Below are positions 3,008-9,072 of a DNA stretch of 20,498 nt, in pieces. The stretch lies in IMG/VR virus record IMGVR_UViG_3300049212_000037, positions 1 through 20,498 of that record. One strand, 5' to 3'. The position numbers were made by a program, and so were the translations under genes. The notes beneath the pieces were generated by a model, which made no database searches, was not told the DNA's origin, and saw nothing but the letters and a program-made list of their open reading frames with translations. This DNA comes from a virus. The stretch's first letter is position 1; the number at the start of each line of letters is the position of its first letter.

Positions 3008-3170
3008 CAACCCGCATCTGCGCGCCCGCCTGGCCGCAATGGATCTCGAAGCTGCCGAGCGGCGCGTCCGCCGCGCTGTGGCCAGACCCGTGCTGATCGA
3101 CTTCAAGGCTGCGCTGTGCTGCGGCACGTCGCTGGGCCGCCGACCGCGGAGCATGTATGTCCCGGATTAA
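2991..3170 (+). CDS. Small basic hypothetical protein (59 aa)
   Basis: A 59-residue ORF from ATG 2991 with a good SD (GAAGGGAG, 2973-2980) 10 bases upstream. The first half is a basic amphipathic helix (LRARLAAMDLEAAERRVRRA), followed by ARPVLIDFKAALCCGTSLG and a basic end. It overlaps the previous gene by 17 bases and the next by 14. No family is recognised. Confidence 0.55.
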   Translation: MTGLPDNPHLRARLAAMDLEAAERRVRRAVARPVLIDFKAALCCGTSLGRRPRSMYVPD

Positions 3171-3555
3171 GTGGGATCGGACAGTGATCGACCGCCCGGG
3201 TGCGCCCGACGCGGTTGCCGTGCTCAAGTATAAGCTCCTGGCCACGCTGGGGAGCTGGGTCTTGCGCTTGCATAAGATCATGGTCGCCGATCCGCCCGGG
3301 CAGTTCCACGGGCACCCTGCCCGCTATCAGATCCGCGTCATCCTGTGGGGCGGCTATGTGGAAGAGATGCTCGACGGTCGCCGGCGTCGCTGGTTCCCCG
3401 GTCGCATCGGGCTGGTGCGCGACACTGACGTGCACCGGATCGACCGCCTGCTAAACGGCCCCAGCTACTCGCTGTGGTTCCGTTCGCCCACCAGCGGGAA
3501 GACGCTGCTGACGGGCTGGGGGTGGCCCCCGGAGAAGCGCGACACTTGGGTTTAA
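3157..3555 (+). CDS. Cupin-like phage protein, possible metal-dependent enzyme
   Basis: A 132-residue protein that resembles small cupin-fold proteins common in phages of proteobacteria. It has a beta-rich core with HGHP (H51, H53), the block VILWGGYVEE (E69/E70), a W-x-PG turn near 79-82, and DVHRI with H93. H-x-H, a later E, a PG turn and a final H are the usual cupin metal-ligand order. The end SLWFRSPTSGKTLLTGWGW also fits that group. The substrate is unknown; it could modify a small molecule or simply bind one. GGAG (3149-3152) precedes ATG 3157. It is the last gene of the first early run. Confidence 0.6.
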   Translation: MSRIKWDRTVIDRPGAPDAVAVLKYKLLATLGSWVLRLHKIMVADPPGQFHGHPARYQIRVILWGGYVEEMLDGRRRRWFPGRIGLVRDTDVHRIDRLLNGPSYSLWFRSPTSGKTLLTGWGWPPEKRDTWV

Positions 3556-5398: not shown

Positions 5399-5599
5399 AT
5401 GGCCATCGTGATCCCGGACAATATCCCCAACCGCACGAAGTGGTGCCAGATCTGCGGCCGCTACAATGCGTCCCCAGCCGATCCGACCCTCCTTCGTCCC
5501 CTCCTGGCCGCTAAGGGCGTTGCGGACTCGGAGAACAAACTGGGGCAGGCGCACTTTAGCTGCTTGAAGGATCTCCAAGCCGAAGTGGAGGGGGGCTGA
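5399..5599 (+). CDS. Small zinc-site protein (66 aa)
   Basis: ATG 5399 follows GAGGGG (5386-5391) by 7 bases. The sequence contains C16-x2-C19 (TKWCQICGRY) and, about 33 residues later, H52-x2-C55 (QAHFSCL), a plausible four-ligand zinc site. The end is an acidic helix, LKDLQAEVEGG. It is one of three small Cys/His proteins in this region, with those at 2334 and 2699. Function unknown. Confidence 0.6.
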   Translation: MAIVIPDNIPNRTKWCQICGRYNASPADPTLLRPLLAAKGVADSENKLGQAHFSCLKDLQAEVEGG

Positions 5600-5829
5600 T
5601 GGCGGTTGCCTGCTTCATGGCCGAAGGGGTTAGCGTCCAGCGCAACTTCGATCCGCCGAAGCGCGCCTCGCTGCGCGCTTGGTATAACGCGGCAACGAAG
5701 CTGATCCCGGACGCGCCCAAGTATGACCCGGCATTCGAGCGGGGCGTCCTGGTCGATGCCGACAGCATTATCTTCGCCAAGGGCGATTGGAATCTGATGA
5801 TAGCGCGGAGACGCTGGCTGCGGGGGTGA
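5599..5829 (+). CDS. Small hypothetical protein (76 aa)
   Basis: ATG 5599 shares bases with the previous stop (TGATG), and GGAGGGGGG lies directly upstream. The central segment PPKRASLRAWYNAATKLIPD is helical and basic; FAKGDWNLMIARRRWLRG is the C-terminus. No family recognised. It is the last gene before the putative lysis promoter, so it probably ends the early block. Confidence 0.6.
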   Translation: MAVACFMAEGVSVQRNFDPPKRASLRAWYNAATKLIPDAPKYDPAFERGVLVDADSIIFAKGDWNLMIARRRWLRG

Positions 5830-5957
5830 ATTGATCGCCCGCCCTTCGCATCGCGCGGAATCCTCGCCCTAACAAGGCGTTAACGCGGTCAAGGGTTGAC
5901 GAGCTCGCGTTTCGCCCCCTATGACGTCCTCCCATGTGAAGTCATGGGGTAGCCGAG
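5830..5957 (+). promoter_or_regulatory. Putative late promoter P1, palindrome and leader hairpin
   Basis: A gene-free stretch between the early block and the lysis genes. The perfect palindrome GCGTTAACGC (5877-5886) lies 9 bases upstream of TTGACG (5896-5901). CGCCCCCTA (5913-5921) follows exactly 17 bases from the first T of TTGACG, with TATGAC (5920-5925) as a possible -10 at an 18-base spacer. CCCATG/CATGGG (5931-5936 with 5943-5948) forms a small hairpin near the expected start of transcription. The TTGACG...CGCCCCCTA arrangement recurs at 8361-8389 before the terminase genes. Confidence 0.55.
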
Positions 5958-6593
5958 TTGGACGCCACGGTTCAAGTAGCACTAATCGCGGGTGTCTCGG
6001 CTATCGTTGGCGGAGGCCTGTCAACATTCGCCTCCACGTTCTTGTCCGTTAAGGTGACCGGACGCAAGGACGAGGTCGCGCGTTTGGACCAACACGTCAC
6101 CGCGCTGCGAGATGAGCTCTCGCAATGTGAGGAACGGCATGGAGTCCTCGAAACAAGGCTTAGGGCTGTTGAGCAGCGGTCAACCAGTTACTTCGCAATG
6201 TGGATCAAAGACCGCAATGGACGTCTTGTCTGGCTTAATGACAAGGCGTTCCTTACTCTATTCGCCCCGCTCGGATACTCCCGGGACGAGCTCGACGGAA
6301 AAACCTTCCGCGACCTGCTTGACCCTGTGGCCGCCGAAGAGATCGAGCTCCTTGACCGCGCGGCCCTCGCGCATCCTGGACACACTCAGTCAATCCTGAT
6401 CCAGCTGCACCCCGACTTGCCATTCCTGGTTGTTATCAAGGTGGCGGCCATCAGCGAAAGCGGGGAGGTCCAGTATGAAGGGTGCGCCTATAATCCGAGC
6501 GATCCCGAGATCCGTTCGGCGGCGGGGACGCGCCGCCAGATTCTGCAACGCGGCAAGTCCGCCAATCACATGCTCCCCGGAGACGAACAATGA
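5958..6593 (+). CDS. Membrane-anchored coiled-coil PAS-domain protein
   Basis: A 211-residue protein. Residues ~5-30 form one hydrophobic helix (VALIAGVSAIVGGGLSTFAS) followed by Lys/Arg, which predicts a cytoplasmic C-terminus. Residues ~37-74 are a charged heptad-like coiled coil (DEVARLDQHVTALRDELSQC). Residues ~78-185 read as a PAS fold: WIKDRNGRLVWLNDKAF, then GYSRDELDGKTFRDLLDP, an acidic helix and the closing strands FLVVIKVAAI and VQYEGCAY. PAS domains bind ligands or cofactors, or mediate dimerisation. There is no kinase, cyclase or HTH output domain. The start is TTG 5958 with GGGG 8 bases upstream; I see no better in-frame start. It is the first gene after promoter P1 and overlaps the endolysin start (ATGA), so a role in lysis timing or as a holin/antiholin is inferred. 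Confidence 0.7.
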   Translation: MDATVQVALIAGVSAIVGGGLSTFASTFLSVKVTGRKDEVARLDQHVTALRDELSQCEERHGVLETRLRAVEQRSTSYFAMWIKDRNGRLVWLNDKAFLTLFAPLGYSRDELDGKTFRDLLDPVAAEEIELLDRAALAHPGHTQSILIQLHPDLPFLVVIKVAAISESGEVQYEGCAYNPSDPEIRSAAGTRRQILQRGKSANHMLPGDEQ

Positions 6594-7246
6594 ACCGCAA
6601 GCTGATCTTCGACGCGGCAAAGGCCGCCGGCGCGGACTTCAACCAGCCGGGTGCTGTGGACAGGATGGACGCAGCGATCAACCAGGCGCTGACTGAGGCG
6701 CTCGGTTTGCCCACGCTGGTGGCTGCGTCTGTTGCGCTGCCGCCTCGCGTCGGGCTCACGGGTCACCAGGCGTCGGACGCCGCGGTCGAGCTGTTGCACT
6801 CATTCGAGCAATGCCGGCTCACGACCTACCCCGATCCTGGCTCGAAGAACGGCCTGCCGATCACTGGCGGCTGGGGGACGACCCGCGACCATAACGGCAA
6901 GCCCTTCAAGCTCGGATTCACCGCGGATCAGGCATACTGGGATCGTCTCTTCATTCGTGACCTGGCCGAGGTCGAAGCGGGCGTTAACCGGCTGCTCGGC
7001 AACGCGCCGACCACGCAGAACCAATTCGACGCGCTGGTGTGCATCGCTTACAACATCGGACTGGACGAGGATGAGGACACCAAGGCGGAAGGGCTGGGGG
7101 ACAGCACTCTGCTGCGCCTTCACCTACAGGGCAACTTTGCCGGCGCGGCCGACGCCTTCAAGTCGTGGCGCTTCAACGATGGCAAAGAGATGAAGGGTCT
7201 GGTCGCCCGTCGCAACGCCGAGGCCAAACTCTACAGAGGTGGATGA
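6590..7246 (+). CDS. Endolysin, GH24 (T4-type) lysozyme
   Basis: A 218-residue muramidase that cleaves the glycan strand of peptidoglycan. The catalytic domain (~60-218) shows E73 in LLHSFEQCR, D82 in YPDPG and T92 in PITGGWGTT; the E-to-D distance of 9 matches T4 lysozyme, while D-to-T is lengthened by a short insert. Typical downstream motifs are NQFDALVCIAYNIG, which is near canonical, and GLVARRNAEAKLY at the end. Residues 1-55 form an extra helical N-terminal region (LIFDAAKAAGADFNQPGAVD) that resembles a small cell-wall-binding or alignment module. There is no signal peptide or SAR helix, so export needs a holin. GGAG lies 7 bases before ATG 6590; ATGA overlap with the PAS gene. Confidence 0.92.
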   Translation: MNRKLIFDAAKAAGADFNQPGAVDRMDAAINQALTEALGLPTLVAASVALPPRVGLTGHQASDAAVELLHSFEQCRLTTYPDPGSKNGLPITGGWGTTRDHNGKPFKLGFTADQAYWDRLFIRDLAEVEAGVNRLLGNAPTTQNQFDALVCIAYNIGLDEDEDTKAEGLGDSTLLRLHLQGNFAGAADAFKSWRFNDGKEMKGLVARRNAEAKLYRGG

Positions 7247-7704
7247 TGGAAAAGGTCGCAGCATTCTTCCGTTGGCTCGGGACGCCCATCCGGGCGATCC
7301 GCGGTCTGTTTCCGTTCACCTATGACGGGCGCCAGACGCTGATCTATCTCATGTGCGCGCTGTCCGCCCCGGTGCTCACTCTGGCGGTCATGTATCTGAC
7401 CGAGAAGGCGGCGGACGCGAACCAATGGCCCGAGCACCGCGAGCTCGCCCGGATCGTGGCCTACTCGCTTCTCGTCTCGGTCTGCGCCTTCTCCATGTTT
7501 GTCGCCTTCCGCACCCTGAGCCTCGGTTCCAAGGACGGCCTGCTCAACCTGAGCAGCAAGGACACGCCGCCGCCTGATCCTGTTCTCGCTGCCAAGCATA
7601 TTGAGGACAAGGTGGCGACAGCCGCCAAAGAGGCAGTTGCCGATGTAGCGGTCGCTGCCGCACAACCAGCGCCCAACACGAACCCAGCAGGGGAACCGCT
7701 ATGA
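7246..7704 (+). CDS. Putative holin, two transmembrane helices
   Basis: A 152-residue protein with two hydrophobic helices (~27-48 LIYLMCALSAPVLTLAVMYL and ~65-88 IVAYSLLVSVCAFSMFVAF) separated by a charged loop with EKAADANQWPEHREL, then an Ala/Pro-rich hydrophilic tail of about 60 residues. A two-helix membrane protein between the endolysin and Rz is the usual position of a holin. ATG 7246 is preferred because AGAGG ends 6 bases upstream; ATG 7243 is immediately before it in frame and overlaps the endolysin stop. The stop overlaps the Rz start (ATGA). The long tail is unusual for a small holin, so a lysis-associated membrane protein is the alternative. Confidence 0.7.
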   Translation: MEKVAAFFRWLGTPIRAIRGLFPFTYDGRQTLIYLMCALSAPVLTLAVMYLTEKAADANQWPEHRELARIVAYSLLVSVCAFSMFVAFRTLSLGSKDGLLNLSSKDTPPPDPVLAAKHIEDKVATAAKEAVADVAVAAAQPAPNTNPAGEPL

Positions 7705-8072
7705 TCGCCGCACTCGCCCTCAAGTTTGGCCTGACCGAGAAGGCCGTTCGGATCGCGCTAGCGATCATCGCGGTCCTTGTGGTCATCGGCGCATTCTATG
7801 CCGTGCTCGACGCTTACGGCGATTCCAAGTTCGAGCAGGGCGAACAACATGCCGACCAGGCTTGGAAGGATGCCTCCAATGAGCTGGTGCAGTCGTCGCT
7901 CGAAGCGGGGACGAAGGCCGACAAGGCCGCGGCAGCGCGTCAACTGGAATACGCCGCTGAGGTCGAGGCCGAGAAGGAGAAGATTGATGAAGCGGTTTTG
8001 CATGGGACTAGCCCTCTTGACGTCCTGTTCCCTAGCACTGGCAGCGTGCCAGCCGGAACGAATAGCAACTAG
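7701..8072 (+). CDS. Rz: i-spanin (Rz-like)
   Basis: A 123-residue inner-membrane spanin subunit. The N-terminal anchor is at ~17-38 (VRIALAIIAVLVVIGAFYAV), followed by a long charged helical periplasmic domain (FEQGEQHADQAWKDASNELV, then KAAAARQLEYAAEVEAEKEK). This is the standard Rz plan, in which coiled coils bridge to the outer-membrane lipoprotein and fuse the membranes at the last step of lysis. The 3' quarter contains the start of Rz1 in the +1 frame, which is the classic nested arrangement. ATG 7701 overlaps the holin stop. Confidence 0.85.
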   Translation: MIAALALKFGLTEKAVRIALAIIAVLVVIGAFYAVLDAYGDSKFEQGEQHADQAWKDASNELVQSSLEAGTKADKAAAARQLEYAAEVEAEKEKIDEAVLHGTSPLDVLFPSTGSVPAGTNSN

Positions 8073-8349
8073 CCTCCCCATCCCGCCCGAGCGAATGGAT
8101 TGCGTCAAGACGTCAAAGCGCCCCGCCCTTCCGCCCGAGTATTCGATTGACTGGGTGCGCGTCGGCCAGGCGGCGACCGTTCCCGAGGCGCTTTCCCGCG
8201 CTAAGGAGGAGGTCGCCAAGTTCGTTGCGACGATCCGGGGCCGCGAGGGCCGGGTCGCCGGTTACATCCTCGAAGTCGAGGGCGAGCTTTTCGCTTGCTC
8301 CAATGATGCCTCCTGGCTTCGTGACTGGCAGGCCAAAGTCGCTAAGTGA
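7987..8349 (+). CDS. Rz1: o-spanin lipoprotein (Rz1-like), overlapping Rz
   Basis: A 120-residue lipoprotein from ATG 7987 in a different frame from Rz. It has a basic start MKRF, a hydrophobic segment GLALLTSCSLALAAC and a lipobox L18-A19-A20-C21, so processing should leave lipidated C21. The early mature part is Pro-rich (TSLPIPPERMD). AAGGAG (7974-7979) lies 7 bases upstream, inside the Rz coding region. The first 86 bases overlap Rz, and the rest extends beyond it. Classical Rz1 proteins have short mature parts of about 40 residues; this one has about 100, with an extra C-terminal region (FVATIRGREGRVAGYILEVE). Two further Cys (C39 and one in FACSN) could form a disulfide. Confidence 0.82.
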   Translation: MKRFCMGLALLTSCSLALAACQPERIATSLPIPPERMDCVKTSKRPALPPEYSIDWVRVGQAATVPEALSRAKEEVAKFVATIRGREGRVAGYILEVEGELFACSNDASWLRDWQAKVAK

Positions 8350-8360
8350 CTTGACAAAGG

Positions 8361-8416
8361 GGGTTGACGCCGGCAGGCATCGCCCCCTAATTCTCACGCA
8401 GGCGGGAAGTTCCCGC
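8361..8416 (+). promoter_or_regulatory. Putative late promoter P2 with dyad at the start site
   Basis: GGGTTGACG (8361-8369) and TCGCCCCCTA (8380-8389) are identical in sequence and spacing to 5893-5901 and 5912-5921. The possible -10 TAATTC (8388-8393) is a poor sigma-70 match. A near-perfect dyad GCGGGAA-G-TTCCCGC (8402-8416) lies where transcription would start. The element fills the 99-base gap between the spanin and terminase genes and should drive the packaging and head genes. Confidence 0.55.
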
Positions 8417-8448
8417 ATAGGGCAGTGCCCGAACGCGGAGCAAAAGTT

Positions 8449-9072
8449 GTGTTGGCGAAACCTTGGGAGAAGAAGGGTTCATCCCCGGTCATAGAGGACG
8501 CGATAGCGGACCAGACCCACGCCCCTTGGCATCCCAAGCCAGCAAAGGTGGCGCCTGAGATCAAGGCCGCCGCCCGTGAGAAAGACATCCGAAACGAGAG
8601 AACTCGCAATGTCACCCCGGCAGCGGTCTTCAAGCGGCAGGAGTTCGCCAAGTCGTATCTGATCGACTTCGACCCGACAATGGCCGCGCTCAGGTGCGGC
8701 CTCGCTGATCCAGAGGACATTGACAACGCGCGAACGCTCGGCTGGTATTACTATCGCCAGCCCGAGACGCTGGCCGCCATCCAAGCCTTTAGCGCGACCC
8801 TTGAGAATGACAAGATCGTCTCCCGTGAGCGCGTGCTGATGGGCCTGCTCGAAGAGGCCAACTACCGCGGCCTCGGTGCGTCCCATTCCGCCCGCGTCGC
8901 CGCATGGGGCAAGATCGCTCAGATGCTCGGCGCAGAGAAGCCTGCCGACACGCCCGACCCGGCGAAGGTGCGCGGGGGCGTCATGCTGATCCCGATGGCG
9001 CAGTCCATCGAAGATTGGGAGCAGGCGGCAACCAGCTCGCAGGCGCAACTCAAGTCCGCAGTCCGCCAGTGA
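8449..9072 (+). CDS. terS: Terminase small subunit
   Basis: A protein of about 207 residues that recognises phage DNA for packaging. The core matches the TerS plan: TPAAVFKRQEFAKSYLIDFD followed by PTMAALRCGL, a helix-turn-helix-like start in which T-x-AA is typical, then a -P-x-LAAIQAF segment, the ERVLMGLLEEA helix and RVAAWGKIAQMLG for oligomerisation. GTG 8449 has GGAG 8 bases upstream; GTG 8425 in frame is the alternative but has no well-spaced SD. It is immediately followed by the large subunit through a GTGA overlap, the usual order. Confidence 0.82.
   Translation: MLAKPWEKKGSSPVIEDAIADQTHAPWHPKPAKVAPEIKAAAREKDIRNERTRNVTPAAVFKRQEFAKSYLIDFDPTMAALRCGLADPEDIDNARTLGWYYYRQPETLAAIQAFSATLENDKIVSRERVLMGLLEEANYRGLGASHSARVAAWGKIAQMLGAEKPADTPDPAKVRGGVMLIPMAQSIEDWEQAATSSQAQLKSAVRQ

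What the first reader, a model, noticed from the sequence alone, without database searches (positions are those of the whole stretch)
5958..6593. PAS-domain membrane protein at the head of the lysis genes
The first gene behind promoter P1 encodes one N-terminal membrane helix, a coiled coil and a PAS-like domain (WIKDRNGRLVWLNDKAF, GYSRDELDGKTFRDLLDP) with no output domain, and it overlaps the endolysin start. PAS domains usually sense ligands, redox state or light, or mediate dimerisation. A phage gene placing a sensor-like domain in the lysis unit suggests lysis timing that depends on a cell signal, or a holin/antiholin with a regulatory cytoplasmic domain. To my knowledge this is not a standard lysis component.
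Basis: partly seen in the sequence, partly recalled or inferred. Interest (0 to 1): 0.78.

Follow-up and report, generated by a model that had tools for sequence, protein, structure and literature searches.

The report
Membrane-anchored PAS protein in phage lysis cassette
A bacterial virus carries, directly before its cell-bursting enzyme, a membrane-anchored protein with a PAS domain, a fold cells use to sense signals, so bursting of the host may be tuned by a signal; this is a strong structural hint, not yet shown.

Summary
ORF 5958-6593 (TTG, 211 aa) has one N-terminal membrane helix, a coiled coil and a complete PAS domain (Pfam PAS_4 above cut-off; Foldseek matches only PAS/LOV domains). 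It overlaps the start codon of a phage lysozyme by 4 nt; a two-helix protein and an Rz/Rz1 spanin pair follow. The only relative found (70% identical; PAS under strong purifying selection) lies in an otherwise unrelated phage, again directly before endolysin, two-helix protein and spanin-like genes. It is the only gene shared between the two loci, so it moves as a lysis part. In other phages that slot, or one nearby, holds a short protein with one membrane helix and a coiled coil, without PAS. Unannotated Cellulophaga phage proteins with a membrane helix, linker helix and PAS-like domain also sit beside endolysins. T4's class III holin T, whose globular domain is regulatory, proves GAF-like in fold here. 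Best reading: a membrane lysis protein or regulator built like holin T, with PAS as regulatory or dimerising input. It is not a class III holin by membership: the T-type N-terminus is absent and the predicted orientation is reversed. Ligand and effect on lysis are untested. The claimed promoter was not found.

The parts
5958..6593 (+). TM - coiled coil - PAS protein, 211 aa, TTG start; stop overlaps the endolysin start (ATGA)
   Evidence: relative L002:7947-8579
5976..6032 (+). single predicted membrane helix, residues 7-25, small-residue rich (conserved GGGL-TF); no K/R before it, K32/R36/K37 after it, so predicted N-out/C-in
6063..6188 (+). coiled coil, residues 36-77 (helix 36-75 in the model)
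6189..6494 (+). complete PAS domain, residues 78-179
   Evidence: 85 of 102 residues identical to L002
6504..6569 (+). C-terminal helix, residues 183-204; no recognised output domain
6590..7246 (+). endolysin, GH24 phage lysozyme
   Evidence: PF00959 E 1.1e-26; phrog_7 endolysin E 5.7e-39
7246..7704 (+). two-helix membrane protein, candidate holin
   Evidence: hydropathy, helices at residues 31-49 and 70-88; no family match
7701..8072 (+). Rz-like i-spanin
   Evidence: N-terminal TM; weak phrog_4297 E 0.007
7987..8349 (+). Rz1-like o-spanin lipoprotein embedded out of frame in and beyond Rz (MKRFCMGLALLTSCSLALAAC), preceded by AAGGAG

Best explanation
The gene encodes a membrane-anchored lysis protein. 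One small-residue-rich helix sits in the inner membrane, a coiled coil pairs two copies, and the paired PAS domains, most likely on the cytoplasmic side, act as a regulatory module: through a bound ligand or a protein partner they bias whether the membrane part assembles, or whether it restrains or helps the neighbouring two-helix candidate holin. The design matches T4 holin T (membrane helix and bridge helix execute, globular sensor-fold domain regulates), reached with a PAS instead of a GAF-like domain. Shown by sequence or computation: the domains, the overlap with endolysin, the conserved slot in an unrelated phage, purifying selection, slot neighbours lacking PAS, and the GAF-like fold of T. 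Inferred: insertion and orientation, dimerisation, control of lysis timing, and any ligand.
For: PAS by sequence and fold. Same slot in window and L002 (PAS / endolysin / two-helix / spanin-like), while the PAS gene is the only tblastn or blastn match between the window and the 16.6 kb L002 locus, and terL and portal have no match in the whole L002 record. PAS is the most constrained part (dN 0.11, dS 1.85). Phages with L002-type endolysins carry 85-111 aa TM + coiled-coil proteins at or near the same place without PAS. Cellulophaga phi38:2 gp11 (TM-helix-PAS-like) overlaps an endolysin start; the phi18:3 and phi19:1 homologues lie in lysis regions. T4 holin T has a GAF-like domain, known to be dispensable for holes and regulatory (PMC12162936).
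Against: Only two members of this exact family were found; no relative in 50,697 phage records, 72,556 plasmid records, a sample of 398 Pseudomonadota genomes or the genome-contig scan. No experiment. A separate candidate holin exists, so the PAS protein need not form holes. Predicted orientation is opposite to T4 T and to the Cellulophaga proteins. No sequence homology to T or, at significance, to the Cellulophaga proteins. PAS can serve dimerisation only. The membrane part of the model has low confidence.
Confidence: 0.5

Rival explanations
1. PAS acts only as a dimerisation or assembly domain: a bulky cytoplasmic cap that sets oligomer size or stability of a membrane lysis accessory, without sensing any ligand.
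For: The coiled coil plus PAS geometry suits dimers; PAS domains commonly dimerise, and the phage VP882 VqmA PAS domain is required for dimerisation as well as ligand sensing (PMC8284805). Neighbouring-slot proteins do without any globular domain.
Against: PAS is far more conserved than the coiled coil or membrane part (85/102 identical), more than a simple clamp would seem to need.
Confidence: 0.25
2. The PAS protein is itself the hole-forming holin (a class III-like single-helix holin), and the two-helix protein is an antiholin or accessory.
For: Architecture parallels T4 T; in T only the bridge helix is needed on the periplasmic side for holes (PMC12162936). It is the first gene of the cassette.
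Against: T needs an N-terminal cytoplasmic amphipathic helix (PMC12162936), absent here (6 residues before the helix); predicted orientation is reversed; no sequence similarity.
Confidence: 0.15
3. A membrane protein unrelated to lysis (superinfection exclusion or interference with host signalling) that merely shares the operon.
For: Phage operons carry passenger genes (general knowledge); there are no functional data. PADLOC gives two weak matches.
Against: The same slot is kept in a second phage with which no other gene is shared over 16.6 kb; similar proteins lie beside Cellulophaga endolysins.
Confidence: 0.1

Closest known systems
T4 holin T (class III holin)
   Same: One membrane helix, long helix, then a sensor-type alpha/beta domain and a C-terminal helix in the same order; the domain is GAF-like by fold and regulatory (PMC12162936).
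   Different: T has an essential N-terminal amphipathic helix, N-in/C-out orientation, GAF-like rather than PAS, and no detectable sequence similarity; no endolysin gene lies beside it in the T4 region read.
Cellulophaga phage families phrog_10199 and phrog_31932 (phi18:3 gp090, phi38:2 gp11, phi19:1 gp108)
   Same: N-terminal helix, linker helix, PAS-like domain (Foldseek BFVD prob 1.00) in lysis regions; phi38:2 gp11 overlaps the endolysin start.
   Different: No Pfam PAS hit; K/R-rich N-terminus predicts the domain outside; no significant profile match to the window protein.
Short one-helix proteins of lysis cassettes (L067, L068, L069, L070, L073; Gordonia phage proteins of PMC9671378)
   Same: Single membrane helix with a cytoplasmic or coiled-coil part, in lysis cassettes; the Gordonia ones are predicted N-out/C-in.
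   Different: 79-145 aa with no PAS domain; in L068-L070 the helix is C-terminal; the Gordonia ones have no coiled coil.
Vibriophage VP882 VqmA
   Same: A phage-encoded PAS domain tied to the lysis decision (PMC8284805).
   Different: A soluble transcription factor with an HTH, acting on qtip transcription; not a membrane lysis-cassette protein.

Membership tests
PAS domain superfamily (PAS_4) | Pfam model score above the curated cut-off | tested here: met
   28.9 against 23.1 bits; relative L002 24.8
PAS domain superfamily (PAS_4) | PAS fold (two strands, helices, three strands) | tested here: met
   model elements E78-84, E89-93, helices, E145-148, E157-165, E171-178; PAS/LOV top hits
PAS domain superfamily (PAS_4) | bound ligand or cofactor | not testable with these tools
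   needs purified protein
Class III holin (T4 T) | single membrane helix followed by a long helix and a globular C-terminal domain | tested here: met
   (membrane helix by hydropathy only)
Class III holin (T4 T) | N-terminal cytoplasmic amphipathic helix and N-in/C-out orientation | tested here: not met
   6 residues before the helix and no K/R there; K32, R36, K37 after it; orientation is a prediction
Class III holin (T4 T) | sequence homology to T | tested here: inconclusive
   hhalign prob 0.1%, E 0.46 with a profile of two sequences; weak Foldseek hits to class III holins E 0.08-0.1
Class III holin (T4 T) | forms holes that release endolysin | not testable with these tools
   needs expression
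PAS sensor kinase or transcription factor (including VqmA) | kinase, GGDEF, HTH or other output domain | tested here: not met
   only PAS-type and weak helix or coiled-coil type families match; 32 residues follow the PAS domain
XhlA-type haemolysin (holin partner) | Pfam/PHROG match to the family | tested here: not met
   no such match at E up to 0.1
phrog_10127 (103 aa, unknown function) | profile match of the N-terminal part | tested here: inconclusive
   residues 4-59 E 0.03 against the library; 1e-4 per record, in window and L002 only of 50 records

The most novel reading that the evidence does not exclude
Phages of several lineages have independently built lysis membrane proteins from one membrane helix, a connecting helix and a PAS/GAF-type sensor domain (T4 T, the Cellulophaga proteins, this family). 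In the window phage a cytoplasmic PAS domain reads a host metabolite, redox or quorum signal and directly gates lysis timing after synthesis, a one-component sensor-effector for lysis.
Probability: 0.25. Interest if true: 0.87.

Novelty: new variant of a known kind. Interest (0 to 1): 0.62.

Why it matters
How phages time lysis is known in detail for few systems. T4 lysis inhibition is the classic case of a holin controlled through a soluble domain. Showing that this domain has a GAF-like fold, and that unrelated phages put a PAS domain on a single-helix protein beside the endolysin, suggests a general design in which lysis proteins carry sensor folds. It gives a direct test: remove or mutate the PAS domain and measure lysis time. 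A confirmed ligand would be a host signal read directly by a lysis protein, not through transcription as in VqmA of phage VP882.

Tried and rejected
Close relatives in GenBank phages, plasmids, genome contigs and a sample of 398 Pseudomonadota genomes: none. PAS_4 in 50 viral records (window, L002 and terminase relatives): only window and L002. A PAS-motif DNA scan of IMG/VR gave 9 stretches, none a short TM-coiled-coil-PAS gene beside an endolysin. Weak tblastn hits of the N-terminal 77 residues (H129, H130) do not lie in matching proteins: chance. PF00959 found no lysozyme in the terminase relatives, so a count of slot neighbours there was not possible. Sequence search against PDB gave no PAS match. 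Homology to T4 T or to the Cellulophaga proteins by profile: not significant. Defence-system models: only weak matches. Promoter P1: not found.

Full report
OBSERVATION. The reading frame 5958-6593 (+, TTG, 211 aa) is as described. Pfam PAS_4 matches residues 82-151 at E 1.4e-6, above the curated cut-off. An AlphaFold2 model from a two-sequence alignment gives a helix 36-75, then a complete PAS arrangement at 78-178 with pLDDT about 80, then a C-terminal helix 183-204; residues 1-37 and 46-77 are of low confidence. Foldseek against the PDB returns only PAS and LOV-type entries in the top 50 (E 3e-5, prob 1.00) and VIA-align gives Z up to 12.5. Hydropathy shows one membrane helix near residues 7-25. 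Residues 36-77 fit a coiled coil: 8 of 12 a/d positions hydrophobic against 4 of 30 others. The start is TTG; the open frame extends only 6 codons further upstream (217 against 211 residues) and the ribosome site is weak (sequence). The stop overlaps the endolysin ATG (ATGA at 6590-6593). No sigma-70-like promoter was found in 5500-8600, so 'P1' is not supported.

THE CASSETTE. Next come a GH24 lysozyme (PF00959 E 1.1e-26; endolysin phrog_7), a two-helix membrane protein of no known family (candidate holin), an Rz-like protein with a weak spanin match and an embedded Rz1-like lipoprotein at 7987-8349. Terminase, portal and head genes follow. In terminase relatives such as Pseudomonas phage Baskent_P4_1 and Sulfitobacter phage M39 lysis genes also precede the terminase, and a short one-helix protein occurs in the cassettes of M39 and of Sphingomonas phage Kharn.

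THE ONLY CLOSE RELATIVE. IMG/VR holds one relative, L002 (70% identity), on a 64.7 kb contig, also directly followed by a phage lysozyme (PF00959), a two-helix protein and spanin-like genes. The lysozymes of the two phages do not match each other by phmmer at E 0.01, and tblastn of all window frames against the 16.6 kb L002 locus finds only the PAS gene; the window's large terminase and portal have no match in the whole L002 record. So the gene was exchanged between different phages yet kept its place before the endolysin. Between the two copies synonymous sites are near or at saturation while dN is 0.11 in PAS, 0.35 in the coiled coil and 0.64 in the membrane part.

WHAT FILLS THE SLOT ELSEWHERE. 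IMG/VR phages with L002-type endolysins carry, directly before the endolysin or one gene further up, proteins of 85-111 aa with one membrane helix and a coiled coil but no PAS (L067, L068, L069, L070, L073; in L068-L070 the helix is C-terminal). The window's residues 4-59 weakly match phrog_10127, a 103-position family too short to hold the PAS domain as well (E 0.03). This suggests (inference) a small membrane lysis accessory to which a PAS domain was joined.

SIMILAR DESIGNS. Among viral predicted structures the model matches Cellulophaga phage proteins (I assigned them to genes by matching protein lengths, then read the genes). They have a helix, linker helix and PAS-like domain: phi18:3 gp090 (followed by a multi-helix protein and the endolysin), phi19:1 gp108 and its Nekkels homologue (a few genes before the lysozyme), Ingeline gp36, and phi38:2 gp11, whose end overlaps the endolysin start by 14 nt. 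They form two related PHROGs of unknown function. Their profile aligns to the window PAS in register but without significance. Weak hits to class III holins in the same search (E 0.08-0.1) led to T4 holin T. An AlphaFold2 model of T reproduces its crystal structures (Z 23-25) and, after those, its best PDB matches are almost all GAF domains or GAF-containing photosensors (Foldseek E 1.6e-6 and weaker, prob 1.00; VIA Z 13.7 over 125-132 residues). GAF and PAS are related folds (general knowledge). I found no held paper that says this of T, but the crystal-structure paper itself is not held, so priority is unknown. PMC12162936 shows that T's globular domain is dispensable for holes and regulatory, whereas the bridge helix and the N-terminal cytoplasmic helix are needed.

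MECHANISM. I propose that the window protein works like T in layout: the membrane helix and coiled coil act in the membrane, and the PAS domain regulates, by ligand or by partner binding. The charge pattern (no K/R before the helix, K32/R36/K37 after) predicts PAS in the cytoplasm, opposite to T and to the Cellulophaga proteins, but like the ten N-out/C-in one-helix proteins of Gordonia phage cassettes (PMC9671378). It is therefore not filed as a class III holin. The best-described phage PAS protein met in the literature search, VqmA of phage VP882, senses the host quorum signal DPO and triggers the lytic programme by transcription (PMC8284805); it shows that phages can use PAS to read host signals, but by another route.

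VERDICT. Observation confirmed; the lysis link is well supported by genome context; signal-gated lysis is plausible but untested. New variant of a known kind.

Noticed in passing
L089:1722-2378 (T4 gene t); model m14b887f411d1: The periplasmic domain of T4 holin T has a GAF-like fold by Foldseek and VIA-align; no held paper was found that says so.
   Followed up: partly
L113:2911-3546, L112:2935-3537, L082:39102-39620, L083:4203-4925, L114:3594-4223: Unannotated Cellulophaga phage proteins with an N-terminal helix and a PAS-like domain lie in lysis regions (phrog_10199, phrog_31932).
   Followed up: partly
7987-8349: Rz1-like lipoprotein gene embedded out of frame in Rz and extending well past it, long for an o-spanin (121 codons with stop).
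   Followed up: partly
3157-3555: 132-aa ORF matching phrog_4786, labelled cysteine dioxygenase (E 1.6e-10).
   Followed up: no
L131:1253-1759: Stand-alone 169-aa PAS protein with a LOV-like motif lacking the usual cysteine (GKTPRVLQGD) on a 259 kb viral contig.
   Followed up: no
L113:4156-4708: phi38:2 gp13/gp14 look like a spanin pair; gp14 is a lipoprotein-like protein with an added C-terminal membrane helix.
   Followed up: no
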